From a bacterium (GTDB lineage Bacteria > Actinomycetota > Thermoleophilia > Solirubrobacterales > Solirubrobacteraceae), in NCBI GenBank assembly GCA_021323635.1, contig JAJPKQ010000022.1, positions 1-64,000 on the forward strand: a stretch of DNA of 64,000 nucleotides, given 5' to 3'. The position numbers and the translations under genes were made by a program. Below the pieces are notes generated by a model that saw only the letters and a list, made by a program, of their open reading frames with translations, did no database searches and was not told the origin of the DNA. Shown here in pieces: positions 55,378-61,442 of the stretch. Positions within the stretch are counted from its first letter, which is position 1, and each line of letters opens with the position of its first letter.

Positions 55378-58300
55378 ATGATGGAGCAGCTGCACACAGG
55401 GGGAGGAACAAGCCGCAGGGCACAGGGACGCCGGCTGCTGGCGGCGCTTGCGACAAGCACTGGGCTGCTGCTCGGGCTGGGCGCCCCGGCTGCGCTGGCG
55501 AGCCAGCTTGCGGTCGAGATCGTCAAGCCGGGCAAGTCGCCGAGCGGCGAACCGCTGCCCGGCGAAGGGGCTGAAGGCAAAGCGACGGTGCCGGCGCATG
55601 AAAAGGTCCCCTTCAAGATCGAATTCACGGACGTGCTTGAGAACCCCGAACCGTGCCCTCCCTGCACATCTGAAGCGACGGTCGAATGGCACTTCGGCGA
55701 CGGCAGTGAACCGGCACTCGAGCATGTGACGGTGAACGCCAACCCGAACGAAACCTACTACGCAGAAACCACGCACGAATTCTCGACCCCCGGCAAGAGC
55801 TACACCGCCGAAGTGCTTGTCAAGGTCCCATATGGAGGAGAATCCACCGAGCGGATAACGATTGAAACCGGCGCGGCGCTGCTCACCTCGCTGGCGGCCA
55901 GCCAATACTTCCCATACGTCGGCGAACCGGTCACCTTCACGGCCAAGCAGGAACTAAACGACTACAAGCCGCCGCTCTCCTACCACTTCCTGCTGAACGG
56001 CAACCCGGTGCAGGAAGTCACGATCGACGAAGGCGCGCCTGCCCCGGGGACCTACGAACAAACCTTCACGAGCACCGGCGCCCAGACGGTCGCGGTGAAG
56101 GCGAGCGCGGAAGCAAGCACCGAAGCCAAGCGACTTGAAACTGAAGCGGCCACGACGGTCGATGTCGTGCCGCATCTCGGCGGGGCGGTGACGGTCAGCC
56201 CGCCCAACCCCTATGTCGGCGAAACGGTCACCTTCTCGGCGCTTGCCGAAGGAGGCGAGCCGCCCTACACCTACTCGGGCTGGCTGCTCGACGGCGGCCC
56301 CTTCCCGGGCGCAGGCACAGCCACCGCGCCGGAGGGCACGCGCGCAAGCGAGCAGGCCAAGTTCACGACCACTGGCACGCACACGGTCACGCTTGGCGTC
56401 AGCGACTCGAGCAGGCCGAAGCGCAGCGAGAGCCTCACCGCGAGCGTGAGCGTGGATCAGCCGCTTGTCGCCTCGATCACGCCCGCCGGCGAAGCCTACG
56501 ACGAGAACCGCCCGCTGAGCTTTGAAGCGCACGTTGCGGGGGGCACCCCGCCTTATGAAGAGCGCTGGCGTCTTTTCCCGATCGGGTACCCCGAATACAC
56601 GACGGCTGCGGGCGCCGGCGCAACCTTCTCCCACACCTTCAACAGTCATTTCGAATCCTCTGGCGCCTACGGCCTGGTGCTCTCCGCGAACGACTCCGAC
56701 GGCCACATCACGACGATCGAAAAGCGCATCCTGGCGCAGCCGTGCATACCGACGGTCGAATTCGGCCTGATCCAGCTCGCCTCGAAGACAGGCTGCCTGC
56801 AGCAGAGCACCGGCGCTGAGGGCGTGAAGCGCTGGTCAACAGAAACGGAAGTGCTGCTCAACGGCATCCCGCTGCAGCCGATCGCCGGACATCCCTTGGT
56901 CCTGGAAGCGCCGAGCAGCGCGCACCCGGGAGGCCTGCTTGAAGTGGGCAACGTCAACCTCACGATCGTCGGCACCGAGCTTGACTTCGCGCTGCTGCAC
57001 GAAAAGCCGCTCAAGTGGGAGCTGCCGAAGGGCGAAAAGGGCGAAGAAAAGTCGCTTGTGACGCTGTCGGTGCCCGCGGGCCTCAAGCTGCTGGGGCTCT
57101 CGGTCGGCGGCTCCATCGGCGTCAAGCTCGGCTACGGCACCGATGGCGAACACTTCGCGACCTTCCCGCTGACGATCGAACTGCCGAAGATCTTCAAGAG
57201 CGGCCCGAACAAGGAAGCGGGCGGTCTGACAAGCGAAGCGGCGCTGTCCGTGGGCGTGAGCGCGAGCGGGCTCGCCGCGGTGCACTTCAAGGGGCTGCGC
57301 GTCGAACTCAACGAAGCGTGGCTCGGCAAGCTGCAGATCAAGGATCTCTGCCTGGCCTTCATACCCGGTGGCAGCGAAGCGATCTCCGAATGCGCCAAGC
57401 CCAGCGTCGGCGGCAAGGAATTCATCGAATGCCAGAACACGAGCACCACCGCCGATCGCTGGTCGGGAACCGCGGTCGTCGTGCTGCCGACGACGTCAAA
57501 GACCGAAATCGGCCTCTTTGGCGGCCTCGTAGGCAGTCAGATCGCCTACCTGGGTGGATTTGTCGAAACAAACCCGGGGCTGCCGATCGTCGATGACGTC
57601 TTTCTCGACCGCGTGGGGATCGGCGTCTGCATCAACCCGCCGCCCTTCAAACTCAAGGGCGAAGTGGGAGTCGATGCGATGCCGGTCGGAAGCAAGCCGA
57701 CGCTGAAGGTCGACGGCTACTTCCAGTACACCAACTCCTACACCGACTCCGAAGGCCACGAACATCCCTGGTCGGTTGAACTCGGCGGCTCGGTGGCGGT
57801 GTATGAAAAGGAAATCGGCGGCGGTGACGTCGTCGTGAACTCAACCGGCGAACTTGAATTCGCCCTGCATGCCGAGCTTGAGCTCTACAGCGTCGTGTCG
57901 ATAAACGGCCATGTGGACGGCTGGATCGAGCCCACCGAAAAGCTCTTCAACATCAACGGCGGCATCGAAGCGTGCCTGCTGGGCGCGTGCATCGGCGCAG
58001 ACGGGGAGGTCTCCTCGACGGGCATCGCCGGCTGCGGCAAGATCCTGGGCCTCGAAGCGGGCTTCGGCTATCGCTGGGGCAGCGGCCATGTGAGCACCTT
58101 TGACGGCTGCTCCTTCGGCGAATACGAAGCTACAAAGGCATCGCTGGCGGACTTCGCCCCCAATCTCACCCGGACGCTTGCGATCGCGCCGCACACCAAG
58201 GCGATCGCGCTGCGCGTGGGCGGCCTCGGCGGCCCGCCCGGGATAACCTTGCGCGGCCCTGGCGGGCAGACGATCGTGATCCCAGCGGGCGCGAGCAAGG

Positions 58301-59103
58301 CGCTGCGCGGCCCAGACTACATGGTGATCGAGAACCGCAGCGAAGCGGCGACCGACATCCTGCTTGCCGATCCTGCCGCCGGCAGCTGGCAGATCCAACC
58401 GGCGCTCGGCTCCTCGGTCACGAGCCTTGCCATCGCCCGCTACTACGGGCCGCCGAGCGCCAGCGGGCACGTGCGAAAGGCGCCCCACGGCCGCCGGCTG
58501 CTACGCGCCACATACCACCTGCAGCCGGGCGAGACGATGGCCCTCTACGAACGCGGCAGCGAAGTGGCGCGCACCCTGCGCGCGCACGTCGCAGGGGCCG
58601 CGTGCTCGAGCAGCAAGCGCGGCCGCCGCGGCCACAGGGCGCCAGCCGGTGCACGCTGCCTGCGCGTCGCCTTCTCGCCCACCTTCGGACCGGGCGGCGA
58701 GCGCTCGATCGTCGCCGTGGTCAGCCGCGGGGGGATCCCGCAGCGCACGATCACGATCGCGCGCTTCCACGTGCCAGCGCCACGGGCGCTCTCGCGCCCG
58801 CGCCTGCAGCTGCTGCGCACGCGCAAGGGCGTGCTGCTTGCCTGGTCGCATCTGGCGGGCGCTGCGCGCTACACGATCTCGGTGCGCACCTCCAGCCGCA
58901 AGAAGCTCGGCTTCAACCCGCCCGCGCGCTGCGGTGCGCTGCTGCTGCGGGGCATCGCCCGCAAGGAGATGGTTACCGCGAGCGTCGGCGGTGTGCGGCG
59001 CAACCTGGAAGCCGGCCCCGCGCGCAAGCTCCTGCTGCGCTCAAAGCGCAAGCGCGCCGGTGTGCGGCGGCTGCGCCACGGGCGGATCTGCCGCGCCGGA
59101 TAG
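55378..59103 (+). CDS. Large secreted PKD-repeat surface protein
   Basis: 1241 residues. Signal peptide to about residue 41 (ends GAPAALAS). Four Ig/PKD-like modules follow (about 60-165, 165-265, 265-370, 370-460); the first has the EWHFGDGSEP core. The middle 500 residues are beta-rich with paired Cys residues and no recognised domain. The final 200 residues are Arg-rich and include one Fn3-like module. There is no LPxTG or membrane anchor, so the basic C-terminus may hold it to anionic surface polymer. In the first 165 residues 15 Glu are GAA and 4 GAG after the signal. Start is an ATG-ATG pair with no strong ribosome-binding site. Confidence 0.75.
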   Translation: MMEQLHTGGGTSRRAQGRRLLAALATSTGLLLGLGAPAALASQLAVEIVKPGKSPSGEPLPGEGAEGKATVPAHEKVPFKIEFTDVLENPEPCPPCTSEATVEWHFGDGSEPALEHVTVNANPNETYYAETTHEFSTPGKSYTAEVLVKVPYGGESTERITIETGAALLTSLAASQYFPYVGEPVTFTAKQELNDYKPPLSYHFLLNGNPVQEVTIDEGAPAPGTYEQTFTSTGAQTVAVKASAEASTEAKRLETEAATTVDVVPHLGGAVTVSPPNPYVGETVTFSALAEGGEPPYTYSGWLLDGGPFPGAGTATAPEGTRASEQAKFTTTGTHTVTLGVSDSSRPKRSESLTASVSVDQPLVASITPAGEAYDENRPLSFEAHVAGGTPPYEERWRLFPIGYPEYTTAAGAGATFSHTFNSHFESSGAYGLVLSANDSDGHITTIEKRILAQPCIPTVEFGLIQLASKTGCLQQSTGAEGVKRWSTETEVLLNGIPLQPIAGHPLVLEAPSSAHPGGLLEVGNVNLTIVGTELDFALLHEKPLKWELPKGEKGEEKSLVTLSVPAGLKLLGLSVGGSIGVKLGYGTDGEHFATFPLTIELPKIFKSGPNKEAGGLTSEAALSVGVSASGLAAVHFKGLRVELNEAWLGKLQIKDLCLAFIPGGSEAISECAKPSVGGKEFIECQNTSTTADRWSGTAVVVLPTTSKTEIGLFGGLVGSQIAYLGGFVETNPGLPIVDDVFLDRVGIGVCINPPPFKLKGEVGVDAMPVGSKPTLKVDGYFQYTNSYTDSEGHEHPWSVELGGSVAVYEKEIGGGDVVVNSTGELEFALHAELELYSVVSINGHVDGWIEPTEKLFNINGGIEACLLGACIGADGEVSSTGIAGCGKILGLEAGFGYRWGSGHVSTFDGCSFGEYEATKASLADFAPNLTRTLAIAPHTKAIALRVGGLGGPPGITLRGPGGQTIVIPAGASKALRGPDYMVIENRSEAATDILLADPAAGSWQIQPALGSSVTSLAIARYYGPPSASGHVRKAPHGRRLLRATYHLQPGETMALYERGSEVARTLRAHVAGAACSSSKRGRRGHRAPAGARCLRVAFSPTFGPGGERSIVAVVSRGGIPQRTITIARFHVPAPRALSRPRLQLLRTRKGVLLAWSHLAGAARYTISVRTSSRKKLGFNPPARCGALLLRGIARKEMVTASVGGVRRNLEAGPARKLLLRSKRKRAGVRRLRHGRICRAG

Positions 59104-59182
59104 GGCCAGCTGCGGCGCGCGGCAAGTGCCGATGCGCCTACGGACGTCCTGCTGCCTCCGACGCTTGAGCGCCGCCGGAGGT

Positions 59183-59209
59183 GGTCACACTTTCCCCTGC
59201 TACGTCGTC
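59183..59209 (+). promoter_or_regulatory. ECF41-type promoter for the oxidoreductase-sigma operon
   Basis: GGTCACA (59183-59189) and CGTC (59206-59209) are separated by 16 nt, closely matching the published ECF41 consensus TGTCACA-N16-CGTC as I remember it. The downstream operon encodes an ECF41-family sigma factor, so this is a likely autoregulated promoter. The ATG is only 8 nt beyond the CGTC, implying a leaderless message. Confidence 0.7.
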
Positions 59210-59217
59210 CTTGGGAC

Positions 59218-60531
59218 ATGATCAGCAAACGGATACTCATCGTGGGCGGCGGGATGGCGGGCGTGCGGGCGGCGATCGGAGCGGCTAGAAGCCTGCGCAG
59301 CGCTGGCGGGCAGATGGAGCTCACCATCGAGCTGATCAGCCCTTCGCCCTGGATGGTCGTGCGCCCGCGCCTCTATGAGGCTGACCTTGCCGGCGTCCGG
59401 GTGCCGCTGGATCCCCTGCTGGCGTCGATTGGCGTCAGGCTGCGGCGCGGACACGTCGCGGAGATCGACGCGAGAGCGCGCACCGTCCGACTCGCGGAGC
59501 GCGCTGAGCCGATCCACTACAACCAGCTTGTGCTGAGCGCGGGCAGCCGCCTTCAACATCCGTGGCAGGAGCTGGTGCACACGGTTGACACCTACTCTGA
59601 GGCGCTCGCGCTTCACGAGCGCATAGCCGAGCTTGCAGCAAGGCCGGGTGCGCAGATGAGCGCGGTGGTCGTTGGGGGCGGCTTCACGGGCATCGAGGTC
59701 GCCGCGGAGCTGAGCGGGATGCTCGAGCAGGTCGCGCCCGGCCGCCAGCGCGGCCCGATCACGCTGATCGAGCGCGCGCCGAGCGTCGCGCCTGAGTTCG
59801 GCCCGCATGCACGCGCGCTGATCGAGCGCGCGCTGCGCTCGCTCGGCGTCGAGCTGAGGACAGGCGCGGCGGTGCGCGAGGTGCGTGAGGACGGCGTCGT
59901 CCTTGCCGATCGGGCGTCGGTCGATGGCGAGCTCGTCGTGTGGGCGAGCGGGCCGCGCGCATCGGAGCTCACGGAGCAGGTTGCAGGGGCGCGCGATCCG
60001 CTCGGTCGCCTGATCGTCGATTGCGATCTGGCCAGCCAATCAGAGGGGGTATGGGCAGCCGGTGACAGCGCCTGCGCACGCGCCGACCGTCAGCACACCG
60101 CGCTGATGTCCTGCCAGCATGCGCTCGCTCAGGGCGCCGTCGCGGGCGCAAACGCCGTCTCCCTCGCGCTCGGGCGGCGCCCGCAGCGCTACCGGCAGCC
60201 TCTTTACCTCACCTGCCTCGATCTCGGCCCTGCGGGCGCCCTGTTGACATGCGGCTTTGAGCGCAACCGGGTGCTCGCCCACGGCGCAGAGGCAAAGCAC
60301 TTCAAGCGCTACATCAACCGCTCCCTGATCTACCCGCCGGCGGATGCGCAAGCGGCTGCGATCCTCGCCCTCGGCAGACGCGCGCGCGGGCGGCGCAGCG
60401 CCGCCCGGCTGAGTGGGCTTGCGCTGCGCAGCGGGCGCGTAAGAGCGATCGTGTGCGACAGAGCAGAGGATCGTGCGGCGCAGTTCGCCGAAATCGCCGA
60501 TCAGCTGCTCGGGCGCGAGGCGGCTCTGTGA
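59218..60531 (+). CDS. NDH-2-like NAD(P)H/FAD oxidoreductase
   Basis: 437 residues. FAD-binding ILIVGGGMAGVRAAI, NAD(P)H-binding VVVGGGFTGIEVAAEL and the FAD end motif VWAAGDSACA match the type II NADH dehydrogenase family. A 50-residue Arg-rich C-terminus follows. ECF41 sigma factors are often next to an oxidoreductase, decarboxylase or epimerase gene whose expression they control; this gene is the partner here. The message is probably leaderless from the ECF41 promoter just upstream. It overlaps the sigma gene by 4 nt. Confidence 0.88.
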   Translation: MISKRILIVGGGMAGVRAAIGAARSLRSAGGQMELTIELISPSPWMVVRPRLYEADLAGVRVPLDPLLASIGVRLRRGHVAEIDARARTVRLAERAEPIHYNQLVLSAGSRLQHPWQELVHTVDTYSEALALHERIAELAARPGAQMSAVVVGGGFTGIEVAAELSGMLEQVAPGRQRGPITLIERAPSVAPEFGPHARALIERALRSLGVELRTGAAVREVREDGVVLADRASVDGELVVWASGPRASELTEQVAGARDPLGRLIVDCDLASQSEGVWAAGDSACARADRQHTALMSCQHALAQGAVAGANAVSLALGRRPQRYRQPLYLTCLDLGPAGALLTCGFERNRVLAHGAEAKHFKRYINRSLIYPPADAQAAAILALGRRARGRRSAARLSGLALRSGRVRAIVCDRAEDRAAQFAEIADQLLGREAAL

Positions 60532-61442
60532 GCGACCGAGCGGCGCTTGCAGCGCGCTTCGAGCGCGAGCGCGCACACCTGCAGCGGGTCGCCTATGCGC
60601 TGCTCGGCTCGCTGAGCGAGGCGGAGGACGTCGTCCAGGAGGCATGGCTGCGCCTCGAGCGCGTGCGCGATGCTGCTGCGATCGGCGACCTGCGCGCGTG
60701 GCTGACACGGACGGTCGCGCGCCTTGCGCTCGACGTGCTTGGCAGCGCGCGCAGAAGACGCGAGCAATACGTCGGCCCCTGGCTGCCTGAGCCGCTCATC
60801 GGCCGTGCGGAGCCGGTGGCGGCCGGCTCTGGGGGCGCGCTCGCGCAGGACCCGGCCGATCGGGTCACCCTCGACGAGTCGATCTCGATGGCGCTTCTGA
60901 TCGTGCTCGAGCGCCTGACCCCGGCCGAGCGTGTGGCCTTCGTGCTCCATGACATCTTCGGGCTGACCTTTGAGCAGGTTGCGGAGGTGAGCGGTCGCAG
61001 CGCTCCTGCCGCGCGCAAGCTCGCGCAGCGCGCGCGTCGCCACGTGGAGACGGGCCGCCCGCGCAAGCCCGCCTCCGCGCCCCAGCAGCGCGAGCTTGCC
61101 CTGGCCTTCGCTACGGCATGCAACGAGGGCGACCTCGAGCGGCTGATGGCGCTGCTCGATCCGGAGGTCGTATGGCGGACTGACGGCGGCGGGGTCGTGG
61201 GCGCAGCGCGCAAGGTCCACCGTGGCGCGCAGCGGGTGGCGCGCGCAATGATCGCGCTGGCTGCGCGCGGCAACGCCAGCGCTGCCCGGCTGGCGGAGGT
61301 CAACGGCGCGCTTGGCCTGCTGACGCGCGGTGAGGACGGCGTGCTGAGCGTCATCTCGCTGACGATCGACGCCGACCGGATCATTGCGATCGACATCATC
61401 CGCAACCCCGACAAGCTGCGGCTGCCCTCGAGCCTGCTGTGA
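60528..61442 (+). CDS. sigJ: ECF41-family sigma factor (SigJ type) with SnoaL-like C-terminal domain
   Basis: 304 residues from the GTG overlapping the oxidoreductase stop. Sigma-70 region 2 (about 5-75, ALLGSLSEAEDVVQEAWLRLERV) and region 4 (about 120-180) are followed by a SnoaL-like domain (about 190-300). The three ECF41 signatures are all visible: YVGPWLPEP in the linker, DGGG followed by ARKVHRG, and NPDKL near the end. In this group the fused domain replaces an anti-sigma factor and tunes activity. It should transcribe its own operon. Confidence 0.93.
   Translation: MSDRAALAARFERERAHLQRVAYALLGSLSEAEDVVQEAWLRLERVRDAAAIGDLRAWLTRTVARLALDVLGSARRRREQYVGPWLPEPLIGRAEPVAAGSGGALAQDPADRVTLDESISMALLIVLERLTPAERVAFVLHDIFGLTFEQVAEVSGRSAPAARKLAQRARRHVETGRPRKPASAPQQRELALAFATACNEGDLERLMALLDPEVVWRTDGGGVVGAARKVHRGAQRVARAMIALAARGNASAARLAEVNGALGLLTRGEDGVLSVISLTIDADRIIAIDIIRNPDKLRLPSSLL

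What the first reader, a model, noticed from the sequence alone, without database searches (positions are those of the whole stretch)
59183..61442. Self-contained ECF41 circuit with a near-consensus, leaderless promoter
The sigma factor carries all three ECF41 signatures (WLPEP, DGGG...KV, NPDKL). Directly before the operon is GGTCACA-N16-CGTC, close to the known ECF41 promoter, and the ATG follows 8 nt later so the message is probably leaderless. The partner is an NDH-2-like oxidoreductase.
Basis: partly seen in the sequence, partly recalled or inferred. Interest (0 to 1): 0.55.

Follow-up and report, generated by a model that had tools for sequence, protein, structure and literature searches.

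The report
Self-controlled ECF41 sigma–oxidoreductase operon
An actinobacterium carries a two-gene switch in which a sigma factor with a built-in sensor domain appears to turn on its own gene and that of a flavin enzyme from a message that starts directly at the start codon; the switch type is already known, and what is new is mainly the enzyme partner in this group and evidence that the leaderless layout recurs in its relatives.

Summary
GGTCACA (59183-59189), 16 nt, CGTC (59206-59209), 8 nt, ATG 59218; a Pyr_redox_2 oxidoreductase (59218-60531) overlaps by GTGA a SigJ/ECF41 sigma factor (60528-61442) with WLPEP, DGGG...KV and NPDKL. The genome has a single ECF41 gene and no second copy of the motif clearly in front of a gene. 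The locus is a standard >COE>ECF> ECF41 operon (Wecke 2012, which lists Pyr_redox/_2 partners), so it is a new member of a known kind.

What the tools add: (1) the leaderless reading is supported. In 100 relatives the -10-to-start distance is bimodal (8-10 nt without a leader; about 29-56 nt with a Shine-Dalgarno), and leadered promoters place the pyrimidine-purine initiator at nt 9-10, the A of this ATG. Class-wide the geometry gives 81 hits against 5 for a control pattern. (2) The oxidoreductase is rare (4 of 146 family genomes), but 3 of the 4 copies sit beside an ECF41 gene, paired with two separate sigma lineages. (3) It folds like NDH-2 but lacks the second quinone-motif glutamine.

Transcription start and sigma dependence remain untested at the bench.

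The parts
59183..59189 (+). -35 element GGTCACA (consensus TGTCACA)
   Evidence: Sequence; published consensus in PMC3426412; orthologous locus G258 has TGTCTCG at the same place
59206..59209 (+). -10 element CGTC, spacer exactly 16 nt
   Evidence: Sequence; spacer end GCTRCGT shared with relatives such as L067, L071, L072, L073
59218..59218 (+). Inferred transcription start, equal to the A of the ATG (leaderless); could be 1-3 nt either way
   Evidence: YR initiator peaks at nt 8/9 and 9/10 after the -10 in leadered and face-to-face promoters; C or T before A in 35 of 35 family hits with N8. Inference, not mapped.
59218..60531 (+). FAD/NAD(P)H oxidoreductase, 437 aa, Pyr_redox_2, NDH-2-like fold; sole recognisable target gene
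   Evidence: Pfam PF07992 4e-39; PDB 4nwz NDH-2 2e-17; AlphaFold model pLDDT 84.6 best matches NDH-2 YjlD and C. thermarum NDH-2, TM about 0.74/0.82
60517..60531 (+). GAGG (60517-60520) 7 nt before GTG 60528, with 4-nt stop/start overlap GTGA (60528-60531): likely translational coupling
   Evidence: Sequence; coupling is inferred
60528..61442 (+). ECF41 sigma factor (SigJ-like), 304 aa, with fused C-terminal SnoaL_2-like domain
   Evidence: AlphaFold pLDDT 88.5, top fold match SigJ 5xe7
60780..60794 (+). WLPEP linker motif of ECF41
   Evidence: Residues 85-89; P87 and P89 invariant in 44 aligned proteins; described as characteristic in PMC3426412
61182..61217 (+). DGGG...KV motif in the SnoaL-like extension
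   Evidence: D219 invariant, G221 nearly invariant in 44 aligned proteins
61404..61418 (+). NPDKL motif at the end of the extension
   Evidence: P294 and L297 nearly invariant in 44 aligned proteins
59155..59181 (+). 9-nt inverted repeat ending 1 nt before the -35; possible end-of-gene hairpin of the upstream gene, no U-run
   Evidence: whole segment z = -1.1, not significant

Best explanation
A self-activating ECF41 operon. The sigma factor is held inactive by its own SnoaL-like C-terminal domain acting on the WLPEP linker. An unknown small ligand or redox change relieves this. The sigma factor then directs RNA polymerase to the GGTCACA-N16-CGTC promoter in front of its own operon, which produces a message whose first base is the A of the oxidoreductase AUG (leaderless). 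Ribosomes translate the oxidoreductase from the 5'-terminal AUG without a Shine-Dalgarno, then restart at the overlapping GTG to make more sigma factor, giving positive feedback. The flavoenzyme, which probably reduces the inducing compound (a quinone or other electrophile), closes the loop by removing the signal. Shown by sequence: gene order, motif, geometry, family and fold. Supported comparatively: leaderless start and the sigma-oxidoreductase link. Taken from characterised relatives: inhibition by the C-terminal domain and own operon as main target. Pure inference: ligand, substrate and negative feedback.
For: ECF41 identity. Own promoter 10/11 to the published consensus, with a single ECF41 gene in the genome and no other motif copy clearly in front of a gene. 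Same architecture in G258 of another genus (sigma 65%, enzyme 55%; TGTCTCG-N16-CGTC-N8-ATG). Enzyme gene found in 4 of 146 family genomes, 3 of them next to ECF41, and in G021 divergent with ECF41 promoters on both sides; the tree forces two separate pairings. Leaderless: identical 8-nt distance in the window and 15 other loci with several unrelated first genes (epimerase-like, carboxymuconolactone decarboxylase, NDH-2-fold, sigma), no homology-supported start at 12-28 nt, leadered class carries SD-like sequence; 81 class-wide hits against 5 control hits, 35 of 56 in the family at exactly N8. Mechanism of the fused domain and single target: PMC3426412, PMC8999054.
Against: No transcript data. 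Mapped ECF41 starts in B. licheniformis and R. sphaeroides have 22/23-nt leaders with a ribosome-binding site, so leaderlessness is not general for ECF41. The G258 -35 is degenerate (TGTCTCG). COE protein YdfG had no effect on signalling and no phenotype was found in the two tested species, so the feedback step is unsupported. The fourth family copy of the enzyme (G190) is not next to an ECF41 gene and has no motif.
Confidence: 0.8

Rival explanations
1. The promoter is real and sigma-dependent, but the start lies a few nt upstream (A59216 or a G at 59213-59215), leaving a 2-5 nt leader that is functionally, not strictly, leaderless.
For: CTTGGGAC contains purines at nt 4-7 after the -10, and general ECF start sites lie about 6-9 nt after the -10 (own knowledge). 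Relatives show distances of 8, 9 and 10.
Against: Pyrimidine directly before the A in 35 of 35 N8 family hits, and the YR peak at nt 8/9-9/10 in promoters that have leaders.
Confidence: 0.15
2. The motif is a chance match or decayed; the operon is expressed from another promoter or by read-through from the upstream gene (55378-59103, same strand, 114 nt away).
For: About 2.3 strict matches are expected by chance in a genome of this composition; the upstream gene is on the same strand.
Against: Position and 8-nt geometry are shared with the G258 orthologue and many other ECF41 loci; chance in the 200 bp before the operon is about 1e-4.
Confidence: 0.05
3. The enzyme is itself part of the sensor (an anti-sigma or redox reporter) instead of an output.
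For: Repeated pairing with two sigma lineages; overlap of stop and start favours balanced amounts.
Against: Co-expression of the partner YdfG did not change Ecf41Bli activity (PMC3426412); partners swap between unrelated folds in the tree, unlike a dedicated binding partner.
Confidence: 0.08

Closest known systems
ECF41 group (Ecf41Bli-YdfG of B. licheniformis, Ecf41Rsp-RSP_0606 of R. sphaeroides; PMC3426412)
   Same: COE gene and ECF41 gene adjacent, TGTCACA-n16-CGTC promoter before the COE gene, WLPEP motif, fused SnoaL-like extension, one recognisable target.
   Different: Partner there is a carboxymuconolactone decarboxylase and the leader is 22/23 nt with a ribosome-binding site; here an NDH-2-fold flavoenzyme and no leader. 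The -35 begins with G.
M. tuberculosis SigJ (PDB 5xe7)
   Same: Closest solved sigma factor: sequence 3e-51 over 290 residues, top fold match, same sigma2-sigma4-SnoaL_2 layout.
   Different: About 38% identical in the structural alignment; partner genes of SigJ were not examined here.
Type II NADH dehydrogenases (C. thermarum 4nwz, B. subtilis YjlD)
   Same: Two-Rossmann FAD/NAD fold, FTGIE motif, best structural matches.
   Different: 20-24% identity; AQIAIQHG becomes CQHALAQG (second motif Gln lost; MSCQ invariant in 33 aligned relatives); C-terminal 34-40 residues modelled at low confidence.
Solirubrobacterales MAG clean270 locus (G258/L173)
   Same: Same operon, enzyme 55%, sigma 65%, same 8-nt geometry.
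   Different: A short intergenic gap between the genes in place of an overlap; -35 is TGTCTCG.

Membership tests
ECF41 | Sigma2 and sigma4 domains without other sigma regions | tested here: met
   PF04542 and PF08281; model
ECF41 | C-terminal extension of about 100 aa with SnoaL-like fold | tested here: met
   SnoaL_2 3e-5, just below Pfam's cut-off; fold match to SigJ and to ketosteroid-isomerase-fold proteins
ECF41 | WLPEP in the linker | tested here: met
   60780-60794
ECF41 | Conserved motifs in the extension (DGGG, NPDKL) | tested here: met
   61182-61217 and 61404-61418
ECF41 | COE gene adjacent, no anti-sigma gene | tested here: met
   Pyr_redox_2 gene upstream, convergent unrelated gene downstream; Pyr_redox/_2 counted as COE in PMC3426412
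ECF41 | TGTCACA-n16-CGTC promoter before the COE gene | tested here: met
   10 of 11 positions
ECF41 | Activity controlled by the extension | not testable with these tools
   Known for Ecf41Bli and Ecf41Rsp
Leaderless gene | Transcription start at or within 5 nt of the start codon | tested here: inconclusive
   Strong comparative support, no 5'-end data
NDH-2 (type II NADH:quinone oxidoreductase) | Two-dinucleotide-binding-domain flavoprotein fold | tested here: met
NDH-2 (type II NADH:quinone oxidoreductase) | AQxAxQ quinone-site motif (motif named from own knowledge) | tested here: not met
   CQHALA: first Gln kept, second lost
NDH-2 (type II NADH:quinone oxidoreductase) | C-terminal membrane-anchoring amphipathic helices | tested here: inconclusive
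   Residues 404-437 below pLDDT 50; weak hydrophobic moment

The most novel reading that the evidence does not exclude
In Solirubrobacterales and neighbours the ECF41 promoter doubles as a leaderless translation start fixed at 8 nt, and unrelated enzymes (epimerase-like, carboxymuconolactone decarboxylase, NDH-2-fold) are swapped behind the same promoter-to-ATG module, so that output of these switches escapes Shine-Dalgarno-based translational control.
Probability: 0.6. Interest if true: 0.45.

Novelty: new member of a known kind. Interest (0 to 1): 0.3.

Why it matters
No inducing signal or phenotype was found in the two experimentally studied ECF41 systems (PMC3426412). A one-target operon whose enzyme recurs with two sigma lineages narrows the guess to a substrate of a flavin reductase and offers a compact test system. 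The fixed 8-nt leaderless geometry gives a sharp rule for finding ECF41 target genes in this order and a prediction that one 5'-end mapping experiment can check.

Tried and rejected
Further regulon members: the seven other loose motif hits in the genome lie within open reading frames and none has the leaderless geometry; rejected as targets for now. Wide occurrence of the enzyme-sigma pair: 402 relatives of the enzyme in GTDB genomes; the best 80 are mostly Proteobacteria at about 40-45% identity, and only the G258 MAG among them has an adjacent ECF41 operon, with two Paraburkholderia loci having a sigma gene within 3 kb. Actinobacterial plasmid relatives (Streptomyces, Pseudonocardia) sit in other contexts. 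Hairpin before the -35: not significant. The M. tuberculosis SigJ promoter paper is not held. No held paper joins ECF41 with oxidoreductase and NADH.

Full report
The observation. The oxidoreductase ATG 59218 is the first ATG/GTG/TTG after the upstream stop and the FAD-binding glycine motif begins a few residues later, so no later start is possible. The sigma gene begins at GTG 60528 overlapping the stop of the first gene (GTGA), with GAGG seven nt upstream.

Chance. The strict promoter pattern occurs once in the window; composition predicts about 2.3 in a genome of this size and eight loose hits exist, against three for the control pattern. The other seven hits lie within open reading frames and none has an ATG at 8 nt. 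Significance therefore comes from position: about 1e-4 for the 200 bp before the operon.

Identity of the sigma factor. NCBIfam SigJ NF007214 scores 321 bits against a cut-off of 271. SigJ 5xe7 is the best solved relative by sequence and by fold of an AlphaFold model with pLDDT 88.5. WLPEP, the DGGG stretch and NPDKL contain invariant or nearly invariant residues across 44 aligned proteins. The own genome has no second ECF41 gene; other hits are weak, general sigma similarity.

Organism. A member of the same family, G258, has the same contig (16261 bases) as the record titled Solirubrobacterales bacterium isolate clean270, so the window is most likely from that order.

The enzyme. Pfam Pyr_redox_2, best solved sequence relative C. 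thermarum NDH-2, best fold matches NDH-2 structures with TM about 0.74/0.82. The quinone motif AQIAIQ reads CQHALA, and MSCQ is invariant in 33 aligned relatives. It uses the same scaffold, but membership in NDH-2 is not shown.

The pair in relatives. Among 146 family genomes four hold the enzyme and three of those have an ECF41 gene beside it. G258 has the same operon with TGTCTCG-N16-CGTC-N8-ATG. G021, in the window's own genus, has the genes divergent with TGTCACA-N16-CGTC before the enzyme and TGTCACA-N16-TGTC before the sigma gene, both leadered. A tree of 100 ECF41 proteins puts the window and G258 together (100/96) and G021 elsewhere, with strongly supported branches forcing two pairings. 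A repeated independent pairing argues that enzyme and sigma factor belong together functionally.

Leaderless geometry. In 100 ECF41 loci of the class the distance from the -10 to the start codon is 8-10 nt (two loci 11), or about 29-56 nt with Shine-Dalgarno-like sequence, with no homology-supported start at 12-28 nt. The 8-nt class includes the window, G258, epimerase-like partners, carboxymuconolactone decarboxylases and one sigma gene. In leadered promoters alone, where the start codon cannot bias the result, pyrimidine-purine steps peak at nt 8/9 (19 of 39) and 9/10 (17 of 39); in face-to-face promoters 38 of 52 at 8/9, although there the opposite -10 element may contribute. That places the initiator on the A of ATG when the distance is 8. 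A class-wide scan for TGTCACR-N16-YGTC-N8-10-ATG gave 81 hits against 5 control hits; in the window's family 35 of 56 are at exactly N8 and the base before the A is C in 33 and T in 2. Not every hit of that scan was checked for a gene. About a fifth of actinobacterial genes are estimated to be leaderless (PMC3160421), so the mode itself is ordinary for the phylum. I found no report of it for ECF41 in the papers held, but many relevant papers are not held. The two mapped ECF41 messages have 22/23-nt leaders.

Mechanism. From PMC3426412 and PMC8999054: the extension restrains the sigma factor, part of it is needed for activity, and the neighbouring COE gene or operon is the only detectable target. 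Applied here, activation would start a leaderless message for enzyme and sigma factor. The inducing signal, the enzyme's substrate and any negative feedback are inference.

Verdict. Real, correctly read, and an ordinary member of ECF41 in design; the leaderless layout and the recurrent NDH-2-fold partner are modest additions.

Noticed in passing
32 of 100 ECF41 loci in L083-L164, e.g. L141, L095, L092 just upstream of the sigma gene: Two ECF41 promoters face each other and overlap within about 62 bp, with the two -10 elements 8 (17 loci), 9 (9), 10 (5) or 12 (1) nt apart, mostly between divergent sigma and partner genes. The inferred starts lie about 9 bp apart, so the two orientations should exclude each other: a symmetrical bidirectional ECF41 promoter. 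Comparable symmetry is known for other bacterial promoters (PMC12825309); I found no mention for ECF41.
   Followed up: partly
L083, L085, L086, L089, L092, L094, L098, L100, L104, L115, L141, L147: ECF41 genes divergent from an ABC-transporter ATPase gene (mostly in family f7), usually with ECF41 promoters in between. This partner is not among the carboxymuconolactone decarboxylase, oxidoreductase and epimerase classes of PMC3426412.
   Followed up: partly
L068 (G190:C168), about 110-215: A tandem array of GTGGGC hexamers lies just upstream of the orphan copy of the oxidoreductase gene, in place of an ECF41 promoter.
   Followed up: no
L207 and L226 (Paraburkholderia): An ECF41-like sigma gene (33-35% identity) lies within 3 kb of a relative of the oxidoreductase; not checked whether the link is conserved.
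   Followed up: no
59155-59181: 9-nt inverted repeat ending one base before the -35; could end the upstream gene's transcript.
   Followed up: partly
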